Virus record (IMG/VR): IMGVR_UViG_3300021197_001557
Coordinates: 1-54,101 of that record
Direction: 5' to 3' (one strand)
DNA: 54,101 nt
From: a virus
Below, in pieces: positions 5,689 through 26,410 of the stretch. The notes under the pieces were generated by a model. The model did no database searches, was not told the origin of the DNA, and worked only from the letters and a program-made list of their open reading frames with translations. A program made the position numbers and the translations under genes. How positions within the stretch are numbered: the first letter of the stretch is position 1; every line of letters begins with the position of its first letter.

Positions 5689-5880
5689 TCACCTCGATTC
5701 TTTGGTCAGGGACCAGCCTGTGTCAAATGCCTTCTTTATTTCAGCCTTTTCTTTGTAGCAAGCACACATTGGTTCTTTAGATGAACACTGCATTTTGCCA
5801 CCAGTCTTAGCCAACTTTTTCATGCAGGCACATGGATTGCTCTTTTTTGCACCACAGCAACAACTGTTTGCATCAGCCAT
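5689..5880 (-). CDS. Small Cys-rich protein with C-terminal tag motif
   Basis: 63 residues from the ATG at 5880, preceded by GGGGGTG; a TTG at 5886 is an alternative. It contains CCCG, CAC and CACY clusters (about ten Cys), implying metal binding. The last residues read KKAFDTGWSLTKESR, a clear copy of the AFDTAWSLIK tag but at the C-terminus instead of the N-terminus. It overlaps the upstream zinc-finger/HTH gene by 8 bases. Confidence 0.7.
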   Translation of the reverse strand: MADANSCCCGAKKSNPCACMKKLAKTGGKMQCSSKEPMCACYKEKAEIKKAFDTGWSLTKESR

Positions 5881-10891: not shown

Positions 10892-12172
10892 TCAATTCAA
10901 ACCATCCAAATTAAACTGGGAAAGGTCAACGCTATCCATTGGAACCTGTGCCTGTTGTCTTTCAGCAAGTCTCATTTGAGTATTTTGGACCGCTTGTTCG
11001 TGAGCGGCCTGTTCTAATGGGTTTCTGTCCATCATAGCGGCTTTTGTCGTATGCCCTGAATAGTCGATGTGTTTGATAGTTGGGTCCCAGCAGGCATTGC
11101 ACCCGTGAGACTCACATTTACCCATGTCGTCTTTTTGACCCGCCGATGGACAGACCCACACGCTGTCAGGTGCTAGATGAGATGCATTCATTGTCGATGC
11201 GCTGACTTGAGGGTGACTGGACATGTAGTCTTCGATCAGACCTCTTGCCAATTCATTACCTTTGGGCGTTGACATACGCAATGCGAGGTTTTTAGGAATA
11301 TCCGCATTAGCCACGCCGCCATTAGCATCCATCCAAGTCCCGACATGGCCGTATTCACGAGTTGGCAACCAAAACTGCTTTTCAGGATGCGCTCGTGCTA
11401 TGTCCACCAACATAGCCAAATGTTCAGGGGATTGTAAGTCGCCAGCGGAAAACAAACGAATGTGGTCTCCTGATTGATGGTTTTCGATTTGATATGATAA
11501 AGCGGCGGCATAGAGCATAGGATTGGACATACCTAACATGTTCCTCCATTGAATGCGCTGGGGGTGTTCTTGGTTCTGCCTGCTGTAATCAGCATAACAG
11601 CCATTGCACGCTGAACCCTCTTTGTTTCTCAAAGTCCCCCCAACATTACAAGCCGCTGTTGGGAGGTCTTCAGCACCACCCCACATTTTACCGGGGGATG
11701 AAAGCCCCCCGTATCCGTCATATGAGTTTGAATTGACTCCTTTTATTCCGGTTTTCTTAATCCATTCAAGTATTTGCCTTGGAGTCTGTGCGACCATACC
11801 TGTTTGATTTTGATAGATGTCTTTCATCACATGGCCCCCTTGACCGTTTCTTAATTGAACGCCCGCACCAGTGATCGGATAAGTTGCTAGGCCTGCTCTT
11901 GATTCGTCTATTGCCTGTTGCCATGTTGGGTGTATTGGCAATTTTGTTGCCTCAATCATAGAACCCGTTCCACCGGGACCCTCGTAGCCCCTTGATGCAC
12001 GGAAAATGTCGAGACCTGAACCTAACTGCGGCAATAACTCATTCACCTCTTTGATACTGCGGAGAAGAATGTCTTTCACTAGAGAGTCATGCATAGGACC
12101 TCCGCATGAATGACAAATCAGGTGATGGGTGTCCTCATGGAGGATTGCATTTTCAGGGTTGCCTCGACTCAT
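10892..12172 (-). CDS. GP88-like phage protein (large variant)
   Basis: About 426 residues from the ATG at 12172, which overlaps the methyltransferase stop (ATGA) and has GGGGGAG 9 bases upstream; a TTG at 12181 is an alternative. The core ACNVGG...CNGCYADYSRQ, then HIRLFSAGDLQSPEHL and EKQFWLPTREY, matches the layout of the GP88 phage family (Cys cluster, a 'GD' motif, then an FW-x-x-TR motif). An N-terminal HLICHSCGG suggests an extra zinc knuckle, and a further C-rich segment CESHGCNACWD lies near residue 375. Biochemical role of the family is unknown to me. A second GP88-like gene lies at 14643. Confidence 0.65.
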   Translation of the reverse strand: MSRGNPENAILHEDTHHLICHSCGGPMHDSLVKDILLRSIKEVNELLPQLGSGLDIFRASRGYEGPGGTGSMIEATKLPIHPTWQQAIDESRAGLATYPITGAGVQLRNGQGGHVMKDIYQNQTGMVAQTPRQILEWIKKTGIKGVNSNSYDGYGGLSSPGKMWGGAEDLPTAACNVGGTLRNKEGSACNGCYADYSRQNQEHPQRIQWRNMLGMSNPMLYAAALSYQIENHQSGDHIRLFSAGDLQSPEHLAMLVDIARAHPEKQFWLPTREYGHVGTWMDANGGVANADIPKNLALRMSTPKGNELARGLIEDYMSSHPQVSASTMNASHLAPDSVWVCPSAGQKDDMGKCESHGCNACWDPTIKHIDYSGHTTKAAMMDRNPLEQAAHEQAVQNTQMRLAERQQAQVPMDSVDLSQFNLDGLN

Positions 12173-14502
12173 GGTGTCCAACTCCCCCTAGAGTTTTTCC
12201 AACTGGCTATCTCATCAGCACCCATGTCAGACAGCCATGGCATGTTCGCATATGCAAACATTTCGGGAACCTTCTTTGAATCGGCCTTTACATTGCCCTC
12301 CCACCTATCGGCGGTGGCAAACTCTCCGCCTTCGGACTCATCAACAAACTTGGTGTTTTCAGGGTGAGGTGTGTCATGCCATGTCACGGGTATGCCCCGC
12401 TTGGATAATGTTTGAAACAACCGGCCAATCGTATCTGAATCCTCGCTACGCCATCCAGTGTGCTGGCCTTCTTGACCTCGATAAGGAGGGTCCAAAGCAA
12501 CTGCGAAGTTTTCCGGCATTCGCTTTTGGTCGATCAAGTCCTTTACACCCATGTTCAAAATGTTTGAATTGCGAAGGGTTCTATGATAATCGCCAAAGTC
12601 TGTTTCATCCTCGGTAATTCCGTAAGGCATTGTTCCACCTGCGTAATATGCTGGTTGCCTTAGACCGCCTTTACCCATCCATTCAGGTTTGGCCTCATCC
12701 GATTTAGCCCATTCAGGTCTAACCTTGCCAAAGTTGCCCTTTGCATCCGTGGTCCATATGTCCTCGTCATCTTCACTTAATCCAAAGCGGTCCCGGTTTA
12801 TTTTCCCCGAATTGATAATTGACTCAACTGATGAACCAAAGCCTCGCCCCGCACTTGCTCTTGGTCTAGGTCCGGGCATATTCATGTGACCCCCTTTATT
12901 GTAGCGGAATGATTGCGAATAGGCGTTCTTAGAGAGGAACCATGTGAGCCTCAATAACTCAATTTCTTCATCGGGAGTAAGTCCGGCTACTTTTCGTTTG
13001 TCAGTCAAACGATTGAAACGGTCTTGTTGCTTGTAATAGTTGATTCCATAGAAGACACCTTCTAGGTCAGGCATCCCAAATTGGTCAATCTCATCTTGTG
13101 TGACTGGTCCACCGACTGGCATTTCAGGCGAACCGTCTTTACCTTTGTATGATGAAAAGGTTGGTGTTTCGCCAACACGAGTCAAAACCATATCCTGCAA
13201 AGCCTTTGCATCAAAGATTTCAGGGCGGTATTTGACAGCGTTGTGCAGGCTCGCCATCTCACGACTTAAGTCGGAACCTATGTGAGAGGGGGGTTGTAAA
13301 CCATATGTGATTCCACCGCCACCCATGAATGGCTCGACAAGAGTTGTCCCCTCCTCCATAAGAGGGGCAAACGCTGTTTGGTATTGCCTCATGTATGGTT
13401 TTTTCAAATCGGTCATGTTTTTTACACCCATGATCGATGCCAACGGTTTCAATGGTGCAGGCCTATCCCACTTGACAACAGACCACGCATCTTCAAATAT
13501 CGCTGATGCTTCATCTGAACGGATAATATCGCCTGATAACGCCTGCTCATACACCTTTTGTCCTTCACGAGTTAAATCGTCAGGATTGAAGTAAAGTCCA
13601 TATCGCCCAGTAGCCAAACCTTGGTCAAGACCGTGTTTACCTTCTGATGCCGACATAGTTGGGGGGACTGGCACGCCTGCTTTTCCTTCATGCTCAACAT
13701 ATCCACTGGCATACCCCGCACTAGGAATCATCAAAAGAGGGTCCACTGAACCCGTGACCTGATAATCTCTAGCCTCTCGCCATGGCCTGCCTTCATCCTC
13801 TCGATATTCACGCCTACCTTCTTTGTCTTGGCTGAATACGCTATAACCTAAACGGGGCATTTCATAACCCTCCTCATTGAATAGAGCAATGTCTCCTTGG
13901 AATGTGCGGCCCACATTGAAACCTAAATCGCCCAAGTTTTTTCGGCCCTGCATCAAATCAAGCATTAACTGCTGATCGAGATTGCCTTGAGTCCATAGAT
14001 GTCGAGACCTCACGCCGCTAAATGGCTTCTTGAACCTATCAGAATGGGAACCCTCCATTGGATTGCCCTCCGCATCTCTATGCATTGTCCCGTGGAAAGC
14101 CTGTCTTTGCTGTCCAGTGTCAACGGCGATACGGGGCTTCTGAAGCGGCATTGCATTGGCAACGGCTACGACTGAAGGAGAGCCGGAGCCAAACTTGCGT
14201 TCAAGACTCAACATTGCTGACGATTTGTCATTAACAGGGTTGGGGGAATGAAACTTTGATTGAGAGATGTTCCTAAACATCCTTGCATCGGCTGGCTCGC
14301 CTAGAGGGTCTTTTGATTTGAATGGCTTTGGAGGTCGCATAAACCGTGTGTCGTCAATGTTCTTTTGGTCGGCAACCGGATACATAGTCAAGCCTGTTTG
14401 ACTGACAACTCCCTGCCCCGGTCTCCCTCTCTTATTCCCCGGCCATTCCTTCAAAATACTGATGCCCGCAGTGACGGCTCCGGTATGGCTGTCGCCCGAC
14501 AT
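12169..14502 (-). CDS. Dam-type adenine-N6 methyltransferase with long N-terminal extension
   Basis: 777 residues. The C-terminal half is a D12-class (Dam-like) DNA methyltransferase: SAM-binding motif FMGGGGITYG at about 392-401 and catalytic DPPY at 671-674. The separation is longer than in Dam itself because of an insert (about 500-650). The N-terminal 330 residues are of unknown nature and may be disordered in part. Between the two halves at residues 334-345 is AIFEDAWSVVKW, an internal copy of the arm-wide tag, as if a tagged methyltransferase had been fused behind another protein. It likely methylates element DNA for protection or acts as delivered cargo; both are inferences. Confidence 0.85.
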   Translation of the reverse strand: MSGDSHTGAVTAGISILKEWPGNKRGRPGQGVVSQTGLTMYPVADQKNIDDTRFMRPPKPFKSKDPLGEPADARMFRNISQSKFHSPNPVNDKSSAMLSLERKFGSGSPSVVAVANAMPLQKPRIAVDTGQQRQAFHGTMHRDAEGNPMEGSHSDRFKKPFSGVRSRHLWTQGNLDQQLMLDLMQGRKNLGDLGFNVGRTFQGDIALFNEEGYEMPRLGYSVFSQDKEGRREYREDEGRPWREARDYQVTGSVDPLLMIPSAGYASGYVEHEGKAGVPVPPTMSASEGKHGLDQGLATGRYGLYFNPDDLTREGQKVYEQALSGDIIRSDEASAIFEDAWSVVKWDRPAPLKPLASIMGVKNMTDLKKPYMRQYQTAFAPLMEEGTTLVEPFMGGGGITYGLQPPSHIGSDLSREMASLHNAVKYRPEIFDAKALQDMVLTRVGETPTFSSYKGKDGSPEMPVGGPVTQDEIDQFGMPDLEGVFYGINYYKQQDRFNRLTDKRKVAGLTPDEEIELLRLTWFLSKNAYSQSFRYNKGGHMNMPGPRPRASAGRGFGSSVESIINSGKINRDRFGLSEDDEDIWTTDAKGNFGKVRPEWAKSDEAKPEWMGKGGLRQPAYYAGGTMPYGITEDETDFGDYHRTLRNSNILNMGVKDLIDQKRMPENFAVALDPPYRGQEGQHTGWRSEDSDTIGRLFQTLSKRGIPVTWHDTPHPENTKFVDESEGGEFATADRWEGNVKADSKKVPEMFAYANMPWLSDMGADEIASWKNSRGSWTP

Positions 14503-15489: not shown

Positions 15490-15879
15490 TCAAATCTCAC
15501 GAGCGATGTAGCCTCTTGAATGAATCTCTTTTGGCTTCGTTCTTTCAACATCAGTCAATGGATAACCTACTGATTTACCTTCTTTATCCTCTTTTGACCC
15601 CTTTGGGACCCTGTGTTGTTGCCTATCTCGGTCAAACTCCTGCGAATTGTTGTATTGCTTTGGCTTTTCAATATCCATAAAGCCGACTAATTCAGCGGGG
15701 CCTTTGCCTGTTCTGATAATACCGACCTCCTCACCCACATATGGGTCGAGGCTATTGGTCCTTCTAGTTTCAATGGTCTTCTCACCATCAAGTATCATTT
15801 CAGTGTATGGGGCTTCACTATCATTGATGTTAATGCCCATCTGTTTAACCAATGCCCACGCTCGGTCAAAGGCCGTCAT
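15490..15879 (-). CDS. Tagged ASCH-domain-like protein
   Basis: 129 residues, starting at the ATG at 15879 so that it begins MTAFDRAWALVK like its neighbours; a GTG at 15894 is the other option. After the tag comes an ASCH-type beta-barrel signature: APYTEMILDGEKTIETRR, then VGEEVGIIRTGKGPAELVG. ASCH/PUA-like folds bind RNA or modified nucleotides. The C-terminus contains GYPLTDVERTKP and GYIAREI. The tag plus a small enzyme-like body fits the cargo pattern of this arm. Confidence 0.75.
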   Translation of the reverse strand: MTAFDRAWALVKQMGININDSEAPYTEMILDGEKTIETRRTNSLDPYVGEEVGIIRTGKGPAELVGFMDIEKPKQYNNSQEFDRDRQQHRVPKGSKEDKEGKSVGYPLTDVERTKPKEIHSRGYIAREI

Positions 15880-15903
15880 GGTAATGGGACGCACCGATCA
15901 TAC

Positions 15904-16338
15904 TTAGGCGATCTGTTTGGTAATAGCCCAAGCATCAACAAATGCTTTGTCAGATGATGCAGTGAAGTAATCAGCCATGCGGCTCCCGCCTTTATTCCAG
16001 TCAGGGTCATCAAGGTCGATTTCTAGTCCGTGAGTATCCTCTTCAACATCTCTCGGATTTATTCGCTCCGTAATCCGTTCGGGGTTATAAGGATTCAAAC
16101 CCTGCGGGTTCCTAGTTGGGTCCGGCTTAAATCCCTTAAATGGGTCCGGCTTTCGATTCTCGTCGCCCCTGTATGACCGTGGGATGAAACTCGGATGTCG
16201 TTTTGATTCCTCGTTAAATGATTCAGAAGAGATTCCAGTAGTCGAAGGGTCTGTATCGTCCCAATCATCCTCCTCCTCGTCATCAGCAGGAGCCATTGCT
16301 GATTTTAGAAAGGTCCATGCCTGATCGAATGCTGACAT
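15904..16338 (-). CDS. Small acidic protein with tags at both ends
   Basis: 144 residues from the ATG at 16338, overlapping the stop of the upstream gene. It begins MSAFDQAWTFLKSAM and ends KAFVDAWAITKQIA, so the tag is present at both termini. The middle is a disordered-looking, Asp/Glu/Pro/Arg-rich linker with no recognisable domain. A protein that is essentially two tags joined by a flexible linker could bridge two copies of the tag receptor. The role is inference. Confidence 0.72.
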   Translation of the reverse strand: MSAFDQAWTFLKSAMAPADDEEEDDWDDTDPSTTGISSESFNEESKRHPSFIPRSYRGDENRKPDPFKGFKPDPTRNPQGLNPYNPERITERINPRDVEEDTHGLEIDLDDPDWNKGGSRMADYFTASSDKAFVDAWAITKQIA

Positions 16339-16814
16339 TAGCAATTCCACCTTTTCAATGAAGCACCTTTGGGTGTGAGTTTGCCACCTTTGCTAGTTGG
16401 TCCTTTGACACCGCCCATCCTTGCACAGAAAGACTTCTTTCTTGCCTTCTTTTTACCAGTCGGATTCTTTTCAGTTACAGGTGGCTTCAGATTCGCCCCT
16501 TCTTCTCTTTTTGCTTTGGCTCGACCTTTCGCATTAAGTCCACCTTTTCGACTGTGTTTGTTGGGGTTGTAACCGTGAAATGGCTTTTCTTTCTTACCTT
16601 TTGTCAAAAGAGACGCAACAAGCGTATTACATGTGTCACAGTCACAAGCCGACTTTTTGGTTGATGATGGAACGCAGTTTGGGACTTTACGCCCTCCTTT
16701 ATCCTTCATTCCAATTTGCTTGTATCCATCCCAGCACGGGTCCTCTTTCTCATCTTTGTATGTTTTTTCCTCGTTTTTCAACAGGGGCCAAGCATTGGAA
16801 AATGCAAGGGACAT
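16338..16814 (-). CDS. Tagged basic phage-type protein (CWDGYKQIGMK family)
   Basis: 158 residues, with GGAG 7 bases before the ATG at 16814. It begins MSLAFSNAWPLLK (tag). Two segments are familiar from marine tailed-phage proteins: CWDGYKQIGMKDKGGRKVPNC at about 28-48, and the C-terminal block from HSRKGGLNAKGRAKAKREEG through KSFCARMGGVKG to LKRWNC, which resembles the DUF6321-type tail. A CDCDTC pair lies between. The protein is strongly basic, compatible with nucleic-acid association. Confidence 0.75.
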   Translation of the reverse strand: MSLAFSNAWPLLKNEEKTYKDEKEDPCWDGYKQIGMKDKGGRKVPNCVPSSTKKSACDCDTCNTLVASLLTKGKKEKPFHGYNPNKHSRKGGLNAKGRAKAKREEGANLKPPVTEKNPTGKKKARKKSFCARMGGVKGPTSKGGKLTPKGASLKRWNC

Positions 16815-16816
16815 GA

Positions 16817-17458
16817 TTACTCCTCTTTCTTGTCGCTAGGTTTCTCATACTTTGTCGAACCCGGCATAGTGTGAGTATTCTTTCTTGCACGGTCAATTAG
16901 ACCCTGACCCAGTTTAGGTTTCTTTGCTGGGGATTCTTGGTCAGGCGATTTTCCTTTTCGATCACCGCCAGCGGTGCGTCTTTTTTCCTCACTACGCTTC
17001 TTTTCGTAATTTTTAGGAGACATTTCACGCATTGGGCCTTCGCCTTGTCCACCATACGGCTCTCCTCCACCATACGGTTCGTCCATGTCACCTTTGGGGT
17101 TGGGGGAGTTGTCTCTTGGATTTTCCATTATTCTTTTTTGGCGTTCCATGTCCCTTGGGTCCGGGTTTGGCGATGGTCTTTTGAAGCGGTTTTCTTTCGG
17201 GTTTTCACCCATGTATGGCTCGCTAGGAGGAAGTTTGTCCATTGGGTTTTGATGCATTGGAGGGGTTGGCATTCGCTTGTCGTCTTCAACTCTCATGTTG
17301 ATCAGCGCATCTAGTAAGCGAGGGTTCATTTGACGCATTGAATCGGCATGGGAACCTTGTCCTAATGGCCCATCAATGGTATTGCCGTCCATTGGGTCAT
17401 CACCATACATATTTGGCATTTTAAGAACGGTCCATGCACGCTCAAAGGAATCGGACAT
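16817..17458 (-). CDS. Tagged disordered Pro/Met/Lys-rich protein
   Basis: 213 residues. It opens with MSDSFERAWTVLKMP, a tag variant. The remainder is low complexity: Pro/Asn/Met-rich (NPMDKLPPSEPYMGENP), a Gly/Tyr repeat (PYGGGEPYGGQGEG) and a Lys/Arg-rich tail. No folded domain is apparent. Two bases separate it from the gene downstream. Function unknown. Confidence 0.68.
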   Translation of the reverse strand: MSDSFERAWTVLKMPNMYGDDPMDGNTIDGPLGQGSHADSMRQMNPRLLDALINMRVEDDKRMPTPPMHQNPMDKLPPSEPYMGENPKENRFKRPSPNPDPRDMERQKRIMENPRDNSPNPKGDMDEPYGGGEPYGGQGEGPMREMSPKNYEKKRSEEKRRTAGGDRKGKSPDQESPAKKPKLGQGLIDRARKNTHTMPGSTKYEKPSDKKEE

Positions 17459-17481
17459 GGCTTTGCGAGGGTGTCTAATAC

Positions 17482-17652
17482 CTAAACACTTTCTATAAGT
17501 CCGGCTTGTTTTATTTCATCCTGCGTCATTTCACGCATCCGCCGCTGACATTTACAGCAATTTGGCCTCTTGGCTATTGAATACAGCCTATGAATTGATT
17601 TTGTTTGAACATTGTAACATCCCCTGCGACATTCGCACCATCTATACGGCAT
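17482..17652 (-). CDS. Small zinc-ribbon-like protein
   Basis: 56 residues found by hand translation from the ATG at 17652. It reads MPYRWCECRRGCYN, then a basic helix, then NCCKCQRRM and an acidic tail (MTQDEIKQAGLIESV). The two Cys clusters could bind one zinc ion; the tail resembles a helix-turn-helix recognition segment. It fills the otherwise empty 17459-17692 interval between two tagged genes and itself lacks the tag. No strong ribosome-binding site is visible. Confidence 0.5.
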   Translation of the reverse strand: MPYRWCECRRGCYNVQTKSIHRLYSIAKRPNCCKCQRRMREMTQDEIKQAGLIESV

Positions 17653-17692
17653 AGATTTCAAGAGATGGGCTGTTGGTTTTTGAATGTTTACT

Positions 17693-19270
17693 TCACCAAG
17701 AATCGTCGTCCTCTAAATCCTCATGACATTCATCGCAGTTATACTCGCCATATCTGTCCTCGTTGGATAAGAGCATCGGTATAGTTTTTCCACATCCGCC
17801 GCATTGAACAATATGGCCCTCCATATCGTCTTGCATGTCATCAGGGTCCATGTCAAACAACTTTTTCGACTTCGACCAGTCAAAATCTCTAGGTTTTACC
17901 AAGTTTTGAAGAGTCAGGGTGTTTCTTGGGTCTCGGTCCATATAAGCCAACCATTCGTATCCCGCATCTCGCATTTGTTGTTTTAGTTGTTCAGTCATTT
18001 GACCCGTCATGTTTCTATTACCATGGCCAACGCCTTGTTGGTTGGCAATCATATCCCGAATACTTTGTTCTAGCATTGGCCGTTGTATTTCAGCACCAAC
18101 CTGATCGTCAGGAATTAAACGACTCAATAATGAATCTCTAGCCTGCTGACCTCCGGGGTATTGAGGATTTTCTTCACTGCCCCTGTTCGGGTTGCCCATG
18201 AATTGCTGTAAAGGACTTATGTATCCTTGACCACCCTGCGGCTCCATAAACATAGCAATGGGTCCGTTTTGTAAAAACTCAATTGCTTCTCGGCCTAATG
18301 CAGGCGGTCTATCGCCTATTTGATTCAGGCCTTTGAGATTCTGTTCGTAATACTCCCTCATTTCCATTGGACTTGGGCGACCCGCATCGTTGAAGACCTG
18401 TTTCAAATCACCCTCCGACCCCTGCCCCCATTCTTCAGATAAGTTGTCCATTGCACCACTCACTAGGTCTTTTTGCGGTTCAGCCCCGTGTGAATAAAAC
18501 TCGGCCAATATCTGTTGCATTGCTTCAGTATCGATTCGGTCATCATCAATCTCATAGAGGTTTGACGGGATTCTTATGTTGTCGCCAAAGTGACCGCCTA
18601 ATGCATGTGCAGTTGCCACCTCCGGGTCCATGGCAAAATAACTGGGATATGTCCCTTCAGTGCCTCCCCTAAATATGCGGCCCATTTTCATTAACCTGTC
18701 CTCTTTAGGTTCACTATTCCTTCTCTCCCAAAGCCTCTCCCCTCCGGGTTCTTTACCCATATTTGGGTCAATGGTATAACCCATTCTTTCGACCACATCA
18801 TAAATGCTGTTACCCAAGCCATGACCCCTTAACTCATCTAAGACATTTACCGCCAAAGGAGCAACCTCCCCCGATTCATGAGATGATGCCATGTTTGCTC
18901 CCCCCACATTCCTATCCCCCATTTCATCCCTCATTCTCTCCATTAAACCATCAATTTCAGTCACTTTTCGGTTCATATCCCATTCGGGTGCGATTTCCTT
19001 TATCCTTTCATATAACGGCCAATCAGATCTTGGTTTTCCGAAGGATGTATTTTCTCTAAGGTCCTTGAAACGGGCAGTTGCCCTCAATTTATCAAGGAAA
19101 TGTCGGCCTTCTTTGATTTTGATTTCTAAGGGGTGTGACATTTCCCTTGTAGGGTGTATCCAATCCATTGTTGCCGATACTCTTTTTCCTTCATCATCAA
19201 ATTGTTCAGCGTATGAGCCGTCAATCAACGGCATTTTAATCAAACTCCATGCGGTGTCGAAGGCGGTCAT
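17693..19270 (-). CDS. Tagged large protein with ART-like segment and C-terminal zinc ribbon
   Basis: 525 residues from the ATG at 19270, which overlaps the upstream stop (ATGA); the frame is open two codons farther. It begins MTAFDTAWSLIKMP. The middle has IFRGGTEGTYPSYFAMDPEVATAHA (about residues 188-212), reminiscent of the R-G and S-T-S/A motifs of ADP-ribosyltransferases, but the catalytic Glu is not clear. The C-terminus is CGGCGKT...CDECHEDL, a zinc ribbon. The enzymatic assignment is tentative. Confidence 0.7.
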   Translation of the reverse strand: MTAFDTAWSLIKMPLIDGSYAEQFDDEGKRVSATMDWIHPTREMSHPLEIKIKEGRHFLDKLRATARFKDLRENTSFGKPRSDWPLYERIKEIAPEWDMNRKVTEIDGLMERMRDEMGDRNVGGANMASSHESGEVAPLAVNVLDELRGHGLGNSIYDVVERMGYTIDPNMGKEPGGERLWERRNSEPKEDRLMKMGRIFRGGTEGTYPSYFAMDPEVATAHALGGHFGDNIRIPSNLYEIDDDRIDTEAMQQILAEFYSHGAEPQKDLVSGAMDNLSEEWGQGSEGDLKQVFNDAGRPSPMEMREYYEQNLKGLNQIGDRPPALGREAIEFLQNGPIAMFMEPQGGQGYISPLQQFMGNPNRGSEENPQYPGGQQARDSLLSRLIPDDQVGAEIQRPMLEQSIRDMIANQQGVGHGNRNMTGQMTEQLKQQMRDAGYEWLAYMDRDPRNTLTLQNLVKPRDFDWSKSKKLFDMDPDDMQDDMEGHIVQCGGCGKTIPMLLSNEDRYGEYNCDECHEDLEDDDSW

Positions 19271-20016
19271 ATCCAATCATCCTCCGAATATCCAGCCTCA
19301 ATAGCGGCCTCTCGTTGCCAATCCTCTAAATCATTCCATTCGCCAAGCATTTCAACCATGCTATCATCATAACCAAGTGTTTCTATGAAATCATCATATT
19401 CAGCCGTTCTAAACACATCTCCATCCATCTCATAACTCGGTGGTTTTGGGTTGAACCTCTCAAGTGATTCATTATTCCTGTAAGCAATCAAGCGGCTTAG
19501 AGCGTCTTTTGCGTGTTGCCCTCTTTGTTCACCACTAAACATTTCGCCTGTTGTTCCCCCCAAAGACCCAACACCTCCAACCTTGTATCGGCCCTCATCA
19601 ATGTATTCTTGAAGTAATTCAATAACTCGGTCATGTGATAAACGATCACCCATGTTATCATCATCCATAACACCAATACCGGGGCTAAACGGGTCTTCTT
19701 GCATTATACCGACTTCGGGTTCTTGAAAATCTCTTGGGTCAATAGTGCTGATGCTTGGTATTGTTCTCCGCATTGGCGGGGTGGTTTTACCTTCTGTATC
19801 TCTTTTCCCTCCCTTATCAGCATAGGGAACGGCTGAACCATACAAAGCATAATGCAAAGCAATATCAGGGTCGTCTGAATAATAGCGTGGGTCATCTCTA
19901 AAATCCCCGCCGCTATACAACATCTCATCATCACCAATCTCTCTTATTCGGCCACGGTCCGAATAAACATCAATAGGGGCTTTCACCAAACCCCAAGCGG
20001 TTTCAAAGGCGGTCAT
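19267..20016 (-). CDS. Tagged protein with weak ADP-ribosyltransferase-like motif
   Basis: 249 residues beginning MTAFETAWGLVKAP. Just after the tag comes LYSGGDFRDDPRYYSDDPDIALHYAL (about 32-57), similar in layout to the segment in the next gene downstream (R/G...YF/YS-x-DP-x-x-A-x-x-A). This suggests the two share a domain, possibly ART-like. The rest is acidic. Both ends overlap neighbours by 4 bases, so translation is coupled. Confidence in the fold is low. Confidence 0.68.
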   Translation of the reverse strand: MTAFETAWGLVKAPIDVYSDRGRIREIGDDEMLYSGGDFRDDPRYYSDDPDIALHYALYGSAVPYADKGGKRDTEGKTTPPMRRTIPSISTIDPRDFQEPEVGIMQEDPFSPGIGVMDDDNMGDRLSHDRVIELLQEYIDEGRYKVGGVGSLGGTTGEMFSGEQRGQHAKDALSRLIAYRNNESLERFNPKPPSYEMDGDVFRTAEYDDFIETLGYDDSMVEMLGEWNDLEDWQREAAIEAGYSEDDWI

Positions 20017-21149
20017 TGGCCCCCCTCCGGTGGCTTTCTTTCATTGTTTTCCCAATGAATGCGCTCGTAATACGCATTGCGTCTCGCCGCTTCTTCTTCA
20101 GGTGTTTCGTCCTTATGTTGGTAATTATCGCCAACGGCAGGTCCTTCAGGGTCATGGACTTCATAAGAGCCACAGTTAGGGCATTTACGCCCACGGCCTT
20201 TATGCCAACCTACAAAATCGGTTGTCTCACCAGTATGTCCACATGAAAAGCATTCTAGCATATCAGCACCAAGCCCCATTGAGAGTTGGTCGATCACTCT
20301 AGCAACTGGATTATCGAACACTTCATTGTCAGGATAATCATCGTCTTCAAATGGCTCATCATCTGACTTGACCATCAGGTTCCATGCGGTGTCGAAGGCG
20401 GTCATTGGCTCACTCTTTTGGCGAAGATCAGAAAATGGTTTATTCCCCATTGAATACTCTCTCCCTCTATAAACTGGACCCGACATCATTTGTTTTCGTT
20501 TTTCAGGACTCATAAATCCGCTTGGTTGCGAAGAATCGGGCGTTGCGCTATATGCACCAAACTCATGCCCTATGGACCGCAATGTTCTGTAATTGTTTTC
20601 TTGTTGTTTTTCTTCTTCGGTTGGTCCAGCGACCCAACGGTCAAAATCAAACTCTTCACCTTCAGGCGGGTCTTTGTAGCCTGTTTGTTGTTTAGCCCAT
20701 TCCGTTATGTCATCGTTTTGGACACGATGAACCGTTTCATGCGCCCCTATTGCGGCCATCTCTTCAACATTCTCATCCCAATTTTCATCGTCTGTAAAGT
20801 CAAGTGCTGACAGGTTTATTCCTGTATAAGACCCGTCATCGTTTAAGCGTGGAGTTGATTCACCACGATGATATGTTCCTTTGTCGCTTTGCGTTGAAGG
20901 CGGTATCGCTGGTTTGTCAATAGCAGTTGATAAATCAACCCACTCTCTTGAACCTTTACGGTAATGTGCGGCGTTTTGTTGGCCTACGCCCTCCATCCTC
21001 GGCTTTCTATCGTATTCCTTATTCTGCGTATATTCGGAAGGGCGTGTTTTATTATGGTCTGCGGCGTAATGATGCCCTTTGTGTCTTGCATTAGGGGCAA
21101 AGTGAAAATCAAACTTGATTAAATTGAAAGCGGTGTCGAAGGCGGTCAT
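20013..21149 (-). CDS. Double-tagged HExxH metalloprotease-like plus zinc-ribbon protein
   Basis: 378 residues from the ATG at 21149 (ATGA overlap with the upstream stop). It starts MTAFDTAFNLIKF. The first half has AAIGAHETVHRVQ, an HExxH zinc-protease signature, within an acidic context. At 20405 a second MTAFDTAWNLMVK occurs in frame, followed by an acidic stretch and a zinc ribbon (CFSCGHTG...CPNCGSYEV). The ORF therefore looks like a fusion of two tagged proteins, or a gene with an internal start that also yields the short ribbon protein. Whether the protease is active is unknown. Confidence 0.78.
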   Translation of the reverse strand: MTAFDTAFNLIKFDFHFAPNARHKGHHYAADHNKTRPSEYTQNKEYDRKPRMEGVGQQNAAHYRKGSREWVDLSTAIDKPAIPPSTQSDKGTYHRGESTPRLNDDGSYTGINLSALDFTDDENWDENVEEMAAIGAHETVHRVQNDDITEWAKQQTGYKDPPEGEEFDFDRWVAGPTEEEKQQENNYRTLRSIGHEFGAYSATPDSSQPSGFMSPEKRKQMMSGPVYRGREYSMGNKPFSDLRQKSEPMTAFDTAWNLMVKSDDEPFEDDDYPDNEVFDNPVARVIDQLSMGLGADMLECFSCGHTGETTDFVGWHKGRGRKCPNCGSYEVHDPEGPAVGDNYQHKDETPEEEAARRNAYYERIHWENNERKPPEGGQ

Positions 21150-21703
21150 GGATTCTCCCACCTTTCGCCTCTTTTCGTTTCCATAAAGGGCGATTGAAAT
21201 TGGTTATTGCGGTTTAGCACTCCGTCCATCCACATTTGGTCTAATTGATCGGCCCCTTCAGTCATTTCAGGGCCAAGACTACGCAGGTCTAGGTTTTTGG
21301 TTGCACCTTTTAATCTCACATAATCCTGTAATAACTCTTGAACCGATTCAAAGCCCAATTCGTTTAATGCGACTTGTAATGACCTAAATTGTTCTTGAGG
21401 GTTGTATTCAGTAAGTGTCTTTGGTTTATCCACTACATTTGTGCCAAGTTGTCTTATGGCTTCTGCCGTTTCCTCCTGTCTTTGAACCGCACTGGCTTTA
21501 TGTTCGTCTAACATCTCATCTAAGGATGACACGCCAAAGTTTCGCCCCTTTCGGGCAGGTTGCATAGCAACTGCACCACAATTCATACAATCAAGGTGTA
21601 TGCCGTTTTGGTCCTCAACCATCATTGGCATTTTACAAGCAGGGCATTCCCATCCTTTGGCTGGCATCTTAATCAAACTCCATGCGGTATCGAAGGCGGT
21701 CAT
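21146..21703 (-). CDS. Tagged zinc-ribbon/coiled-coil protein
   Basis: 185 residues beginning MTAFDTAWSLIKMP. Immediately after the tag is a zinc ribbon: CPACKMPMM, then CMNCGAVA (about residues 20-45). The remainder is helical, with EEMLDEHKASAVQRQEETAEAIRQ-like heptads (described here by position, about 58-85) and a Leu-rich helix VQELLQDYVRLKG. Four-base overlaps at both ends link it to the two metalloprotease-like genes. No enzymatic motif. Confidence 0.72.
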   Translation of the reverse strand: MTAFDTAWSLIKMPAKGWECPACKMPMMVEDQNGIHLDCMNCGAVAMQPARKGRNFGVSSLDEMLDEHKASAVQRQEETAEAIRQLGTNVVDKPKTLTEYNPQEQFRSLQVALNELGFESVQELLQDYVRLKGATKNLDLRSLGPEMTEGADQLDQMWMDGVLNRNNQFQSPFMETKRGERWENP

Positions 21704-22773
21704 CAGTCGTCATCTCCCCGTATCAACCGGCGTAGCCACTCTCTATCTTTCTTTACTTTTTCAGGTGATCGGTAAAAGTCAGGGTTTTCATCATAAAACT
21801 TACCCATGCTGTGAGATACTTCTCTTTGCATGTCATGATGGTTATTGAGGTCGTTTGCGCTATACTCGGCAACTTTCTGTTTCCAGTCTGAATCCTCATT
21901 ATGAGGGTCTTCATAAATAGACGCTAAAGACTCCTGCATCAGTATCCGCCGCATAATGCCGCTTATGTCATCATTAAAACTGTTATTTCTCCTTTGATTG
22001 CCAACATAATGCTCTCCTCCTCTATCCGCATATTTTTTGGTCCATTCGTGTTCTTCTTCAGGTTGAGTTGTATGGCCCAATTCATGGTTAATGAGGCGAA
22101 TAATCCTGTCCATAATAGGAATGTCTTCGTTATCTCTTAGGTATTCCTCTTTTTGAGACCGATACCTTTCGTTATCCCTCCTATATCTCGACTCGGCAAT
22201 TTTGTTTCGGGCTTCCAAACGCCTTCTTTCTTGCGCCTGTTCCCTCCAATTATCGGAGTCAAAATCAATATCGGGCATGTCCATCCAATGGGTATATCCC
22301 GGCGTTTTTGTCCTAGAAGGTGGTCGTGGGTTGTCTTTTTCATATTCCTCTTCCATATCAAATCGGACATTGCTGGTGATGTTAGGAAGGCTGATCAACA
22401 TTCGGCCATCGCCAAAAAGTGGTTTGTCAAGGTTATCTTGGCTTTCGCCTCTCCAATTAGTTTTCTGTTCGTAGCCTTCGTCACTATTGGCTTGACCGCC
22501 CGGACTAAAATGACCATACTCATCTAAGTAGCGTTCTCGGTGTGTTTGATTCTTTTCACCGCCATGTGCGTTTTCACCTTCAGGGTTATCCCAATTAGGG
22601 ACCGCATCCCAGCCGCCCCTATCATCATACTTGTTTGGGTTTTCTTCGGGGGTATTCTGTAAGCGGTTATACAACCACATCCGCTTGTAAGCGATTTCTT
22701 GAGGAGTTTCATTGCCCTCAATAAAATCAAAATCAGCCTTGAAGAAAGCCCATGCTTCATCGAATGCGCTCAT
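21703..22773 (-). CDS. Tagged HELGH metalloprotease-like protein
   Basis: 356 residues from the ATG at 22773, chosen because it gives MSAFDEAWAFFKADF and an ATGA overlap with the gene upstream. The body contains RIIRLINHELGHTTQPEEEHEW (about residues 220-241), a strong HExxH zincin signature with acidic residues downstream that could supply the third ligand. The flanks are rich in Arg/Asp/Glu and Tyr. A zinc peptidase function is likely by motif; the substrate is unknown. It is one of three HExxH proteins in the tagged cluster. Confidence 0.78.
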   Translation of the reverse strand: MSAFDEAWAFFKADFDFIEGNETPQEIAYKRMWLYNRLQNTPEENPNKYDDRGGWDAVPNWDNPEGENAHGGEKNQTHRERYLDEYGHFSPGGQANSDEGYEQKTNWRGESQDNLDKPLFGDGRMLISLPNITSNVRFDMEEEYEKDNPRPPSRTKTPGYTHWMDMPDIDFDSDNWREQAQERRRLEARNKIAESRYRRDNERYRSQKEEYLRDNEDIPIMDRIIRLINHELGHTTQPEEEHEWTKKYADRGGEHYVGNQRRNNSFNDDISGIMRRILMQESLASIYEDPHNEDSDWKQKVAEYSANDLNNHHDMQREVSHSMGKFYDENPDFYRSPEKVKKDREWLRRLIRGDDD

Positions 22774-23084
22774 TCGCCTCGCCCCGTTCCGTTGCACATA
22801 TCGCATTCAAGACCTTTATTGCGGCCATGAGGTTGGTCGCCTGTGCCTTTGCACTGGCCACATATAGATTGTTTTTGAGGTGTCATGGCGTATTCCCTGT
22901 CATGAGGGGTAAAGGACTCACATGTTCGGCAATCCCAGCCATGGATGACCGGATAGCCATACCCCAACTGGTTTACCCGTTGGGTCATTTTAGTGCCGCA
23001 TTCGGGGCAAATGTCATTCCCCCCAAACTCAACAAGGGGTTCGCCTTCTTTGAGCAATCGCCATGCTTCATCGAATGCGGTCAA
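22770..23084 (-). CDS. Tagged DnaJ-type zinc-ribbon protein
   Basis: 104 residues. I choose the TTG at 23084: it sits behind AAAGGTGG and makes the protein begin (M)TAFDEAWRLLKEG, the conserved tag; GTG codons at 23096 and 23093 are alternatives. The body has CPECGTKM, CRTCESF, then CGQCKGTG and CDMCNGTGRGE. The last two are CxxCxGxG repeats like the central domain of DnaJ. Two zinc sites are expected. Its start overlaps the HMG-CoA-lyase stop by 17 bases. Confidence 0.72.
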   Translation of the reverse strand: MTAFDEAWRLLKEGEPLVEFGGNDICPECGTKMTQRVNQLGYGYPVIHGWDCRTCESFTPHDREYAMTPQKQSICGQCKGTGDQPHGRNKGLECDMCNGTGRGE

Positions 23085-23955
23085 TGACTTCACCACCTTT
23101 ATTCTTGATCGCTCTTACTGCACGACGCATTTTCATGCCACGGGGCTTATGTTTTATCCAAGTAGCCAGTCGCACGGCATCTTTCAGGTCCTTTGACTTA
23201 ACACCACAGTCGATGTCTCTAGCCTCGCACCATTTAACGAATACTTCAGTTGCTAGGTTCGCACCTGAACCGGGGATGAATGGGCAACCACCTAAGCCAC
23301 CAATGCTAGTATCAAACTCTTTTATCCCTAAATCGACAGCAATATCGACATTTTGATACAGATAAGGGCCATGATGGAGGTGTAAAGCGATGTTTTCAGT
23401 TATATCGCTGGTAATGTCGTATGCTTTCTTGATCATCACTGGGGTGGCAATACCATCTGTGTCGCATAATACAACCTTATTGCCGAATTGCATTGCTATT
23501 TCGACAGCATTCTTCAAATCCTCATCAGGACAACCGAATGCCATTGAGATATAGACACGCACATTGCTAGGCTCTATGCCTTCTAATGCCAGTTTGTATT
23601 CCTCGACAATCGAATCCAGCCCACGGCCATAGTTGGACATGTTGAATACTTCATTTGGCGAGTAAAATATGTTGAATAAGTAAGCACCTACTAACTTAGC
23701 ACGGTCAACACCACGCTTATTCGGCACTAAAACGGACATATTGGCATCTAAACCGGCAACTGCGGCATACACCCCGTCGCTTTCAGCCATGTTTGGGACC
23801 AACTTGGGGTGGACAAATGCGCCAACTTCTATGTCAGTAAGTCCTGACTTAGCCAACGCCGCCACCAATTCAACCTTCTCGTCATATGATATTGGGTATT
23901 TTAGAGCCTGAAGTCCGTCTCTAGGTCCCACTTCAAAGATGGAGACCTTCTTCAT
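23068..23955 (-). CDS. Divergent HMG-CoA lyase (DRE-TIM metallolyase)
   Basis: About 295 residues from the ATG at 23955 (ATGA overlap with the upstream stop). Family signatures are clear: EVGPRDGLQ near the N-terminus, AFGCPDED, LCDTDGIATP, and the lid motif GGLGGCPF-x-PGSGANLATE containing the catalytic Cys. HMG-CoA lyase cleaves HMG-CoA to acetoacetate and acetyl-CoA. The usual HxHDTxGxAxxN metal-binding segment is HLHHGPYLYQN here: the HxH ligands remain but the Asp-Thr is gone, so specificity or activity may have changed. It is the only metabolic enzyme in the window, embedded without a tag in the tagged cluster. Confidence 0.87.
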   Translation of the reverse strand: MKKVSIFEVGPRDGLQALKYPISYDEKVELVAALAKSGLTDIEVGAFVHPKLVPNMAESDGVYAAVAGLDANMSVLVPNKRGVDRAKLVGAYLFNIFYSPNEVFNMSNYGRGLDSIVEEYKLALEGIEPSNVRVYISMAFGCPDEDLKNAVEIAMQFGNKVVLCDTDGIATPVMIKKAYDITSDITENIALHLHHGPYLYQNVDIAVDLGIKEFDTSIGGLGGCPFIPGSGANLATEVFVKWCEARDIDCGVKSKDLKDAVRLATWIKHKPRGMKMRRAVRAIKNKGGEVIDRIR

Positions 23956-25127
23956 ACCCATCCACCTTCAGTGTCACGGAAGTAGTCCTCCCCGACTAAT
24001 TGAGCAATGCGAGATTCAGGGTTCTTCTCACTGAAATCCTTCAGGCGTTTCAATGGAACGGCGGATTCATGGAAAAAGCCACCTGCACCTAAAGCACCCA
24101 TTGGTGTGACATAGGTCTTCAGGTCGGAGATCGGATTGTGTTCTTCACCTTCATATCTCAACTCCAATGGATATGTTCCGTGTAATTCAGGGTTGGTCTT
24201 ATCGCCTTTTCTCCTGTGAATCTGTTCAAAACGATATGGGTGCATTTGAGGCGCACCCCATTTGGTTCCTTTCAACTGCCATTTACTTGGTTCCTCAAAA
24301 TAACTCCCACCCATCACGGGGCGTTGATAAATCATATCTCCTTCTTGGTTCTTCCTTCGGATTACATGGTCGGTGTCCCACTTCCCGTTATCCCTCCAAG
24401 GCTTTCTGTTGATTGCCATCCTCCGGCCATAGCCGCCCTCGGTCATTTTCCGACCAAGTTTATTCCACATGCCATAGGCTTCAGGGGAATATGTATCGTC
24501 TCCCGCTCGACCATAGGTTTGAGCCATAGTCCCCAACATATGGGACCCAATCCCTTGACCACCCATTCCGGGCAATACGCTCATCTGTGCTACATTGCCA
24601 TCCAGCGTTGGTGCGCCGTGTCCGACAGTCATCCATTCTTTTGAATCATTGGCCGCTTCGTGCCGAATTGCCGCTTCAAGGACTTCGGGGGCTAATGCCT
24701 GTTGCCATGGGGTCCATGCTACTGGTCTCCCACTTCCGTGTCTAGTAATACGGCGTTGCTCAAGGTGTTGAGGAAACTCGGTAAGACCCAATGGAGTTGA
24801 AAAGCGGTCCTGCTTCATCTCACGAAGGGTTCCTTCAACAGTTGATCGTCCACTACGACTATCCTCATAGGGTTCGTCCTCCCATTCTGAATATACATCG
24901 GGCCATTGGTCGTGTCTCCTATTGCGGAGTTTACCTAAACGGTCAATGTTCTCCTCCAAAATCGGAATAACCTTGCCAACAGGCATTTTATACTCGTGTT
25001 GAAGCACGCCAGCATCTGAATAGCCAAGGTTCATGTTGGGTCTGATGAGTTGTATCAGGCTTTCAGGAGTCTCTTGGAGAATCGGGTCGGCCTTAATGAG
25101 GTCCCATAACTGGTCAAAAGTTATCAT
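23952..25127 (-). CDS. Tagged GNAT-like acetyltransferase
   Basis: 391 residues beginning MITFDQLWDLIKADP (tag variant). The middle contains VAQMSVLPGMGGQGIGSHMLGTM (about residues 186-208), matching GNAT motif A (V-x-P-x-x-x-GxGIGxxL, acetyl-CoA pyrophosphate loop), followed by SPEAYGMWNKLGRKM where GNAT enzymes have the terminal helix. Long N- and C-terminal regions of unknown fold surround it. Substrate unknown. ATGA overlaps on both sides couple it to the metalloprotease-like gene and the HMG-CoA-lyase gene. Confidence 0.75.
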   Translation of the reverse strand: MITFDQLWDLIKADPILQETPESLIQLIRPNMNLGYSDAGVLQHEYKMPVGKVIPILEENIDRLGKLRNRRHDQWPDVYSEWEDEPYEDSRSGRSTVEGTLREMKQDRFSTPLGLTEFPQHLEQRRITRHGSGRPVAWTPWQQALAPEVLEAAIRHEAANDSKEWMTVGHGAPTLDGNVAQMSVLPGMGGQGIGSHMLGTMAQTYGRAGDDTYSPEAYGMWNKLGRKMTEGGYGRRMAINRKPWRDNGKWDTDHVIRRKNQEGDMIYQRPVMGGSYFEEPSKWQLKGTKWGAPQMHPYRFEQIHRRKGDKTNPELHGTYPLELRYEGEEHNPISDLKTYVTPMGALGAGGFFHESAVPLKRLKDFSEKNPESRIAQLVGEDYFRDTEGGWV

Positions 25128-26410
25128 AGCCCTCGGTCCCCCATAAATTGACTAATATCAAAGTCTTTCCCCATAAGTTTGGCCGCATTAGCAACTGCAC
25201 GGAGTCCCATTGCCTTTCGACTGTCGGGGACTACGCCAGCCTGATCGTTCACTGAACCAACCATCCGTTGGTCTTTGAGGTGATGTCCAAGGTGGCTTAT
25301 CTCACCTCTAGCATCATTTTGATAACTGTTGTATTTTGGCGACAATTGCCTGTAATCTCTAAACAATGCGTCTTCGGAACCCGGTTCCATAGGAATTGAG
25401 TCCCATTCGGGGTAATAGTCTTCAGGGTCAATGTATTCATCCCATTTGTCCTCATACCAGCGGTCCCCTTCAGGCCCGCTTCTTACTCGGTATCCACCGC
25501 CATATGCCTCACTTCTTGGTTCAGCACGAGCGTATTCATCGGAAAAGTCTGACAATTTAGGGGGGAATGGGATGCCGGTCAACCTAGCGGTGTGAATCTC
25601 ATCACCCATTGCCATGCTTTCAGGAGACAAGTTGGAGCCGGGGTGGTTGGCATAAGCCGCCCATGCATCCTCGTGATGGCGACTATTGCGGTTCTTTGGA
25701 CCGTCTTGCCTTCGACCAAAGGTCTTGTTTCGATTATCCAAGCCAACCTCTTGACCTAAATGGGCGGCATACTCGTGCGCCCTGAAGAAGTTATCATCAA
25801 TGAAACCCTGCAATACCTCTCGCTGTTCAGGGTTTGGATTGTCACTATCTCCTAAACCAAAGTCATCCATCGCTTTCTGATCAACAGCCGCTTGATAGTG
25901 AGCCATCAATTCATCATTAACAGCGGCGTGCATTGCTTCGTGGTGTAATGTTTGCTCGACACCCTCTTCTAATCGGTCTGATTCTCTTAAACCACCACCA
26001 TAAGTCCCGTATTGCATCCACCACGCTGGCGATGACAGGTCAACGCCATAGTATCCTTTTCGCTGTTGAGGCAATACTTCTCGCTTAGGCAACTGTTCCA
26101 TATAGCGTTCAGGGGTTCCATCCTCGCCGTATCTCCAACGAGGCATTTCTGTTCGTGAATAGTTTTCAGCACGCCCCGCTTTGGTTCGCAGGTCATGGTT
26201 TTTACCGACAGGGACAAAATGCCCCAATGTGTCTCCACCCATTGCCCCTTGCATCATTCGCCTGCCGTTATCTCTAACAGGCGTTCCAAAGAAGAAGTCC
26301 TTAGCAAGCATGTCCCACATGAAATCAAAAACTTCGTCGTGGTCCTGCTTTTCAGCGTCAGACTCCTTGGAAAAAAGAAAACCAGCAGAAAATGCATTAC
26401 CGCCGGTCAT
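25124..26410 (-). CDS. HEAMH metalloprotease-like protein with internal tag
   Basis: About 428 residues from the ATG at 26410; the frame extends to 26473 but the first 21 codons look non-coding. The tag variant EVFDFMWDMLAKDF lies near residues 25-38. A zincin motif, TLHHEAMHAAVNDE, lies near residue 166. The C-terminal half is rich in Tyr/Pro/Glu/Arg. It is the first gene of the leftward tagged cluster, with CCCCTTCGGGG (a 4-bp stem) just before the start codon. Peptidase activity is inferred from the motif only. Confidence 0.75.
   Translation of the reverse strand: MTGGNAFSAGFLFSKESDAEKQDHDEVFDFMWDMLAKDFFFGTPVRDNGRRMMQGAMGGDTLGHFVPVGKNHDLRTKAGRAENYSRTEMPRWRYGEDGTPERYMEQLPKREVLPQQRKGYYGVDLSSPAWWMQYGTYGGGLRESDRLEEGVEQTLHHEAMHAAVNDELMAHYQAAVDQKAMDDFGLGDSDNPNPEQREVLQGFIDDNFFRAHEYAAHLGQEVGLDNRNKTFGRRQDGPKNRNSRHHEDAWAAYANHPGSNLSPESMAMGDEIHTARLTGIPFPPKLSDFSDEYARAEPRSEAYGGGYRVRSGPEGDRWYEDKWDEYIDPEDYYPEWDSIPMEPGSEDALFRDYRQLSPKYNSYQNDARGEISHLGHHLKDQRMVGSVNDQAGVVPDSRKAMGLRAVANAAKLMGKDFDISQFMGDRGL

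What the first reader, a model, noticed from the sequence alone, without database searches (positions are those of the whole stretch)
15490..26410. A shared 14-residue tag, F-D-x-A-W-x-L-[IV]-K, on a battery of unrelated proteins
At least ten consecutive genes encode proteins that begin with variants of MTAFDTAWSLIK, while their bodies differ completely: HExxH metalloprotease-like, GNAT-like, ASCH, zinc ribbons, ART-like and disordered basic proteins. Further copies are at the C-terminus (genes at 5689 and 15904), internally (5364, 12169, 20013, 25124) and near the start of the left-edge gene. A short amphipathic peptide usable at either end is what known targeting peptides look like: T4 capsid-targeting sequences, encapsulin cargo peptides, microcompartment encapsulation peptides. 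I infer a cargo-loading system that packages effector enzymes into a virion or compartment. I know of no description of this motif.
Basis: partly seen in the sequence, partly recalled or inferred. Interest (0 to 1): 0.95.

Follow-up and report, generated by a model that had tools for sequence, protein, structure and literature searches.

The report
Archaeal virus cargo-loading peptide tag
A large family of viruses that infect abundant ocean archaea puts the same 12-residue start, M-T-A-F-D-x-A-W-x-L-[LV]-K, on dozens of otherwise unrelated enzymes, most likely to load them into the virus head so that they enter the next cell with the DNA, as bacteriophage T4 does with its internal proteins.

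Summary
Ten consecutive genes (15490-23096) plus 23952 begin with F-[DE]-x-A-W-x-Phi-Phi-K; others carry it internally or at the C-terminus. Two cited copies (25124, left-edge gene) do not pass a profile test. The record is a circular 107-kb tailed virus; a homologous virus lies in a contig of a single-cell Candidatus Poseidoniales genome. An exact DNA pattern for the motif hits 102 stretches in IMG/VR. I collected 405 distinct tagged proteins in 183 body clusters; reversed peptides give 4 hits against 444. Conservation stops just after the lysine. Tags follow the clade's capsid protein and sit on late-strand genes (91 of 469, against 3 of 317 early). A strict version of the pattern has no match in 84,980 cellular genomes. 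Between two close relatives, tagged bodies are replaced while the tag stays. Bodies include ART-fold enzymes, HExxH proteins, kinase-like proteins and methyltransferases. Best explanation: a capsid-targeting sequence, probably cut after Lys by the S78 prohead protease, loading effectors into the head; it works like the T4 CTS but is unrelated in sequence. Packaging and cleavage are inferred, not shown. I found no published description of the motif.

The parts
15490..15894 (-). tagged protein, weak ASCH-like body; tag 15844-15879 (MTAFDRAWALVK), true start probably ATG at 15879
   Evidence: profile score 37.9; ASCH E=0.017, below the Pfam cut-off
15904..16350 (-). tagged at both ends: N-terminal 16303-16338 (MSAFDQAWTFLK), C-terminal 15916-15942 (FVDAWAITK, 3 residues from the stop)
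   Evidence: scores 33.0 and 16.9; both copies conserved in G044
16338..16814 (-). tagged basic protein, tag 16776-16814 (MSLAFSNAWPLLK)
   Evidence: score 13.7
16817..17458 (-). tagged, disordered-looking charged body, tag 17420-17458 (MSDSFERAWTVLK)
   Evidence: score 28.5
17693..19276 (-). tagged 527-aa protein, tag 19235-19270 (MTAFDTAWSLIK); body links to the 'MPIVPGSL' cluster
   Evidence: score 39.0; no homologue in the close relative G044
19267..20016 (-). tagged, body in the largest cluster (53 proteins, which includes the ART-fold members), tag 19981-20016 (MTAFETAWGLVK)
   Evidence: score 38.2; cluster 0
20013..21161 (-). tagged HExxH (AHETVH) body; second internal tag 20367-20396 (FDTAWNLMVK) before a zinc-ribbon region; N-terminal tag 21114-21149
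   Evidence: scores 28.9 and 24.5; no homologue in G044
21146..21703 (-). tagged zinc-ribbon protein, tag 21668-21703 (MTAFDTAWSLIK)
   Evidence: score 39.0; weak TFIIB-type zinc-ribbon match, E=0.0076, below cut-off
21703..22806 (-). tagged HExxH (NHELGH) body, tag 22738-22773 (MSAFDEAWAFFK)
   Evidence: score 28.5
22770..23096 (-). tagged zinc-ribbon / CxxCxGxG protein, tag 23049-23084 (LTAFDEAWRLLK)
   Evidence: strict match; no homologue in G044
23068..23961 (-). HMGL-like enzyme without a tag inside the cluster: internal contrast
   Evidence: Pfam HMGL-like 1.3e-19; untagged in G000, G001, G017, G024 and G044
23952..25127 (-). tagged GNAT-like protein, tag 25092-25127 (MITFDQLWDLIK)
   Evidence: score 17.6, conserved in G044; GNAT assignment by eye only, no Pfam match
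12169..14502 (-). 777-aa protein, internal tag 13471-13497 (FEDAWSVVK) shortly before a D12-type adenine methyltransferase domain
   Evidence: score 16.1, conserved in G044; MethyltransfD12 9.2e-06
5364..5681 (-). cysteine-rich protein with internal tag 5496-5522 (FLTGWSIVK)
   Evidence: score 18.0
5689..5886 (-). cysteine-rich protein with C-terminal tag 5701-5727 (FDTGWSLTK, 3 residues from the stop)
   Evidence: score 21.4

Best explanation
The motif is a capsid-targeting sequence of a clade of tailed viruses of Candidatus Poseidoniales. The short amphipathic helix (F, A, W, L on one face) is recognised during head assembly, probably by the scaffold, protease or inner head surface, and brings each tagged protein into the prohead. 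The S78 prohead protease probably then cuts after the final lysine and frees the cargo, which is ejected with the DNA into the next cell. Cargo includes ART-fold enzymes, HExxH metalloprotease-like proteins, kinase-like proteins, DNA methyltransferases, ParB-like and zinc-ribbon proteins, which would act on host machinery or defence at once. Shown: the tag, its modularity, its restriction to this viral clade, its late-strand location, and the cargo families. Inferred: head destination, binding partner, cleavage, ejection and function in the host.
For: 405 distinct tagged proteins, 183 body clusters, 444 hits against 4 in reversed peptides, 426 of 438 copies within 15 residues of a start codon. 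Information content is 4.4 bits at the Lys (K 99%, R under 1%), 0.94 bits at the next residue (A/M favoured) and near background within a few residues. 43 of 50 tag-selected records encode the same MCP family; of 36 records selected by MCP alone, 19 have the tag pattern, reversed pattern 0. In seven near-complete genomes 85 of 338 late non-tail, 6 of 131 late tail-block and 3 of 317 early genes are tagged. In the SAG virus two tagged genes lie between portal and capsid genes; in G008 tagged genes closely follow the MCP. Four tagged genes are absent from a relative with 96% identical MCP, and other tagged genes stand there. Untagged late proteins are enriched for Phi-Phi-K, not Phi-Phi-R, in their first 40 residues (8.7 against 3.7 per 1000 in the rest; early genes show no such shift). 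The genome encodes Peptidase_S78, portal and terminase. Bodies: ART fold by profile and fold search, kinase-like, 33 HExxH bodies against 4.7 expected, D12 methyltransferase, GNAT, ParB. T4 precedent: a 10-residue N-terminal CTS, and Alt, an ART processed at both ends (PMC9026906).
Against: No virion proteomics was available for this clade. The C-terminal and internal copies would not be removed from the cargo by a cut after Lys, so cleavage cannot be the only purpose. The receptor is unknown. The Phi-Phi-K signal in untagged proteins is modest, and some instances are ordinary secondary structure (for example the protease's own first strand). A few tagged genes lie in the tail block. HVTV-1 and HCTV-1, cultured relatives with a homologous MCP, lack the pattern.
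Confidence: 0.72

Rival explanations
1. The peptide recruits proteins to another assembly than the head: the tail lumen, or a virus-made compartment or membrane site in the infected cell.
For: Six tagged genes lie in the late tail block, including 83641 in the window's genome; the window also encodes small membrane proteins and a GTPase-like protein.
Against: Tagged genes are far denser outside the tail block (85/338 against 6/131) and sit between portal and capsid genes in the SAG virus. I saw no shell protein other than the MCP, but did not search for encapsulin or microcompartment models.
Confidence: 0.1
2. The peptide is a recruitment tag for the virus-encoded group II chaperonin (thermosome), which folds tagged proteins.
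For: A thermosome gene is present in all seven near-complete genomes examined.
Against: The chaperonin is an early-strand gene; folding clients would be expected among early and structural proteins too, but early genes and large tail proteins lack the tag.
Confidence: 0.07
3. The peptide docks all effectors onto one host target, such as RNA polymerase or the proteasome, after ordinary late expression.
For: Many bodies are enzymes that modify macromolecules.
Against: Late expression is an odd time for host-directed effectors unless they are packaged, and such docking would not need a fixed terminal lysine.
Confidence: 0.07
4. The conservation is at DNA level: a translation-start or recombination element used to shuffle cassettes, with no function for the peptide.
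For: Some tag codons are biased relative to the bodies (GAC 69% against 35%; Leu TTG and CTC); cassettes are exchanged between relatives.
Against: F, E and K codons follow body usage, several Ala and Leu codons are used, and the motif also occurs internally and at C-termini.
Confidence: 0.04

Closest known systems
Bacteriophage T4 capsid-targeting sequence (IPI, IPII, IPIII, Alt) with prohead protease gp21
   Same: Short N-terminal peptide shared by unrelated, variable internal proteins; targeting residues precede a C-terminal processing residue; an ART is among the cargo; tags possible at both ends (Alt) (PMC9026906).
   Different: T4 processing is after Glu, here the end residue is Lys; no common sequence; here many more bodies carry a far more uniform tag; the protease is Peptidase_S78; host is an archaeon.
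[quoted passage not shown]
   Same: An N-terminal segment of 30 residues directs a foreign protein to the head (PMC9024508).
   Different: Dar proteins show no common N-terminal consensus by BLAST (PMC9024508); here one consensus covers 183 body clusters.
Polyvalent effectors and MuF-fused toxins of tailed phages
   Same: Similar cargo repertoire (ART, zincin-like, GNAT), predicted to be packaged and injected (PMC9503650, PMC7824862).
   Different: Those are multidomain fusions or fusions to a head protein; here separate genes share a 12-residue peptide.
Encapsulin cargo-loading peptides and microcompartment encapsulation peptides (from general knowledge)
   Same: Short amphipathic peptide usable at a terminus to load enzymes into a protein shell.
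   Different: The shell gene associated here is a tailed-virus MCP next to portal, terminase and protease.

Membership tests
T4-type capsid-targeting sequence | short terminal peptide shared by proteins with unrelated mature bodies | tested here: met
   405 proteins, 183 body clusters, same 12-residue start; that they are internal head proteins is untested
T4-type capsid-targeting sequence | processing after Glu by gp21 | tested here: not met
   terminal residue is Lys in 99%; protease is Peptidase_S78
T4-type capsid-targeting sequence | peptide cleaved off by the prohead protease | tested here: inconclusive
   sharp boundary after Lys and N-terminal Phi-Phi-K enrichment in untagged late proteins; no peptide data
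T4-type capsid-targeting sequence | carriers are present in virions and ejected | not testable with these tools
   uncultured viruses, no proteome
Polyvalent effector proteins | several effector domains fused in one large polypeptide | tested here: not met
   in the window mostly separate genes of about 65-530 aa; 12169 and 20013 are partial exceptions
Encapsulin or microcompartment cargo system | dedicated non-viral shell protein encoded with the cargo | not tested
   no systematic search for encapsulin or BMC models over the genome was run; the associated capsid protein is a viral MCP
Tailed viruses related to haloarchaeal Druskaviridae, infecting Poseidoniales | homologous MCP, S78-type protease, portal and terminase; host link | tested here: met
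   MCP 30-32% identical to HVTV-1/HCTV-1; Pfam portal, terminase, S78; syntenic virus in the single-cell genome AG-422-I20 of Ca. Poseidoniales
Order Magrovirales or Adrikavirales | placement by comparison with exemplar genomes | not testable with these tools
   exemplars ON649702 and PP497040 are not held

The most novel reading that the evidence does not exclude
A whole clade of Poseidoniales viruses uses one cleavable, plug-in peptide as a general delivery address, turning the virus head into a protein-delivery device with over 180 interchangeable cargo families; it would be the largest and most uniform capsid-targeting system known and, as far as I know, the first in archaeal viruses.
Probability: 0.6. 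Interest if true: 0.88.

Novelty: new variant of a known kind. Interest (0 to 1): 0.8.

Why it matters
If true, a sequence signature predicts the injected effectors of abundant marine archaeal viruses directly from metagenomes, giving hundreds of candidate host-takeover or counter-defence proteins with almost no assigned function. It would extend the T4 capsid-targeting principle to archaea, offer a short portable tag for loading proteins into virus heads, and give a direct test of how such cargo systems evolve by exchanging bodies behind a fixed address.

Tried and rejected
First helix of one common fold: rejected, 183 body clusters share nothing but the tag, and in the modelled ART-like and kinase-like examples the tag is a separate N-terminal helix, at pLDDT below 50 in the latter. 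Motif common in cellular proteins: strict pattern with ATG has no match in 84,980 species genomes; the one related contig there, in a Poseidoniales single-cell genome, is the virus itself and carries looser copies. I first took DLLK|AD in the MCP and FILK|AS in the protease as processing sites. The MCP alignment shows homology to the haloviruses continuing upstream of DLLK, and the protease site is the start of its catalytic domain (Pfam match begins at residue 25), so neither is used as evidence, although both are among the Phi-Phi-K counts. No MCP homologue is in the PDB by sequence. Pfam and PHROGs name few bodies. HVTV-1 was searched for an equivalent shared tag: the patterns used found none across genes, but its gp115 has a repeated SVLK/SILK-D...DPTEQAPNRW segment. 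Key HVTV-1 proteomics and Poseidoniales virus papers are not held. Text search for the motif letters found nothing relevant.

Full report
What was checked. The window is bases 1-54101 of a 107,132-base virus record. Strict six-frame scanning gives 10 motif copies against 0.15 in shuffled sequence. A profile made from 405 copies puts the window's N-terminal copies at 13.7-39.0, against a maximum of 8.7 over 1,572 reversed or shuffled proteins. Ten consecutive tagged genes, 15490 to 23096, carry it at the N-terminus, as does 23952; 5689 and 15904 carry a C-terminal copy, and 5364, 12169 and 20013 an internal one. The copies claimed in 25124 and the left-edge gene score below the null and are not counted, although the left-edge one is conserved in G044.

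What the element is. The rest of the record was read. It encodes terminase, portal, Peptidase_S78 prohead protease and an SU10-type major capsid protein, a probable tape measure, and on the opposite strand replication genes and a thermosome. The first and last open frames join into one 1061-residue frame across the contig ends, matching a single 1096-residue gene in relative G044, so the genome is circular or circularly permuted and essentially complete. The MCP is 30-32% identical to those of haloviruses HVTV-1 and HCTV-1. A syntenic virus (MCP 81%, terminase 83%, portal 80% identical) lies on a 106-kb contig of the single-cell genome AG-422-I20 of Candidatus Poseidoniales, so the host group is probably marine group II archaea; at the least the virus was in or on such a cell. 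About 75 kb of that contig read as N here. Assignment to Magrovirales or Adrikavirales could not be tested.

How widespread. An exact codon pattern (A-F-D-x-A-W-x-Phi-Phi-K) has 102 hit stretches in IMG/VR. Scanning those loci gives 405 distinct tagged proteins in 183 body clusters; reversed peptides give 4 hits against 444, and 426 of 438 copies lie within 15 residues of a start codon. The logo is M-T-A-F-[DE]-x-A-W-x-[LIV]-[LV]-K; the lysine is 99%, the next residue prefers A or M (0.94 bits), then conservation falls to background. The pattern with an ATG is absent from 84,980 cellular genomes. 43 of 50 tag-selected records hold this MCP family, some of the rest being fragments. In the reverse direction, 19 of 36 records selected only by MCP hold the pattern, with no match to the reversed pattern; both haloviruses have none. 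589 IMG/VR stretches encode a relative of the MCP. So the tag is a trait of one viral clade.

Where it sits. In seven near-complete genomes, tags occur on 85 of 338 late non-tail genes, 6 of 131 genes of the MCP-to-tail block and 3 of 317 early genes; at least one of the three early hits, in a thermosome, looks like chance. In the SAG virus two tagged genes lie between portal and capsid genes; in G008 tagged genes closely follow the MCP. The HMG-CoA-lyase-like gene inside the window's cluster is untagged there and in four relatives.

Modularity. G000 and G044 have MCPs 96% identical. Among the late-strand genes compared, every other one has a counterpart, apart from one doubtful 85-codon frame, but four tagged genes (17693, 20013, 21146, 22770) have none; G044 has other tagged genes in their place. 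Bodies change behind a constant tag, as expected of accessory cargo rather than structural parts.

Cargo. The largest cluster (53) includes HGT-motif proteins: their profile matches KptA-type RNA 2'-phosphotransferases (E 2.5e-4) and, more weakly, other ADP-ribosyltransferase-fold enzymes, and the model (pLDDT 78.9) finds the same fold family (TM-scores about 0.3). The second has HExxH in 19 of 26; over all bodies 33 against 4.7 expected. A cluster of 10 has a kinase-like model (pLDDT 67, best matches all kinases; low TM-scores). Others match D12 methyltransferase, GNAT, GH-E nuclease, ParB and zinc ribbons. Most bodies have no match.

Mechanism. A 12-residue amphipathic helix that ends in an invariant lysine, attached to exchangeable enzymes encoded with the virion genes of a virus that has a prohead protease, is best read as a capsid-targeting sequence. 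In T4 the first 10 residues of IPIII suffice, targeting residues precede processing residues, and Alt, an ART, is processed at both ends (PMC9026906). In P1 the first 30 residues of DarB suffice, but no consensus links the Dar proteins (PMC9024508). Cleavage after Lys is suggested, not shown, by the sharp boundary and by N-terminal enrichment of Phi-Phi-K but not Phi-Phi-R in untagged late proteins (99 against 38 in the first 40 residues; 399 against 373 elsewhere; no such shift in early genes; p = 0.007 and 0.003 for the two late groups). I give head targeting 0.72 and cleavage after Lys about 0.5.

Relation to the known. Head-packaged ARTs and polyvalent effectors are established ideas for bacteriophages (PMC9503650, PMC7824862), and ARTs were noted in HVTV-1 and HCTV-5 (PMC8651126). 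I found no description of this motif nor of capsid targeting in archaeal viruses in the held library. It works like a T4 CTS; it is not a member by sequence or cleavage residue. Hence a new variant of a known kind.

Noticed in passing
window 1-659 with record 104606-107131: Two halves of one 1061-residue open frame; the record is circular or circularly permuted although classed as linear.
   Followed up: yes
window 27284-37870 (+): A 3528-residue protein with an N-terminal hydrophobic stretch and Cys-rich C-terminal region; relatives have only much shorter matching frames (about 300-950 aa).
   Followed up: no
window 8734-9465 (-) and small genes 6807, 9479, 9717: A GTPase-like protein (GPSMAGKT, NKMD) encoded with several small membrane proteins; conserved in synteny in the Poseidoniales single-cell virus (about 50-64% identity).
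   Followed up: partly
tag codons in 405 genes: Asp codon GAC is 69% in tags against 35% in bodies, with Leu TTG/CTC also favoured: a trace of tag DNA spreading by recombination, or a start-region codon effect.
   Followed up: partly
HVTV-1 gp115, L114:458-4399: A cultured relative's large 'zeta toxin' protein contains an ART-like region and two repeats FVKAAESVLK-D / DLVDAAQSILK-D followed by DPTEQAPNRW; a possible equivalent cargo system.
   Followed up: partly
window 10892-12181 and 14643-15452 (-): Two GP88-family proteins (Pfam PF17338) flank the methyltransferase gene 12169; neither carries a significant tag, though one relative's tagged body also matches GP88.
   Followed up: no
window 23068-23961 (-): HMG-CoA-lyase-like gene found in five of seven genomes, mostly within or near the tagged genes, never tagged.
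   Followed up: partly
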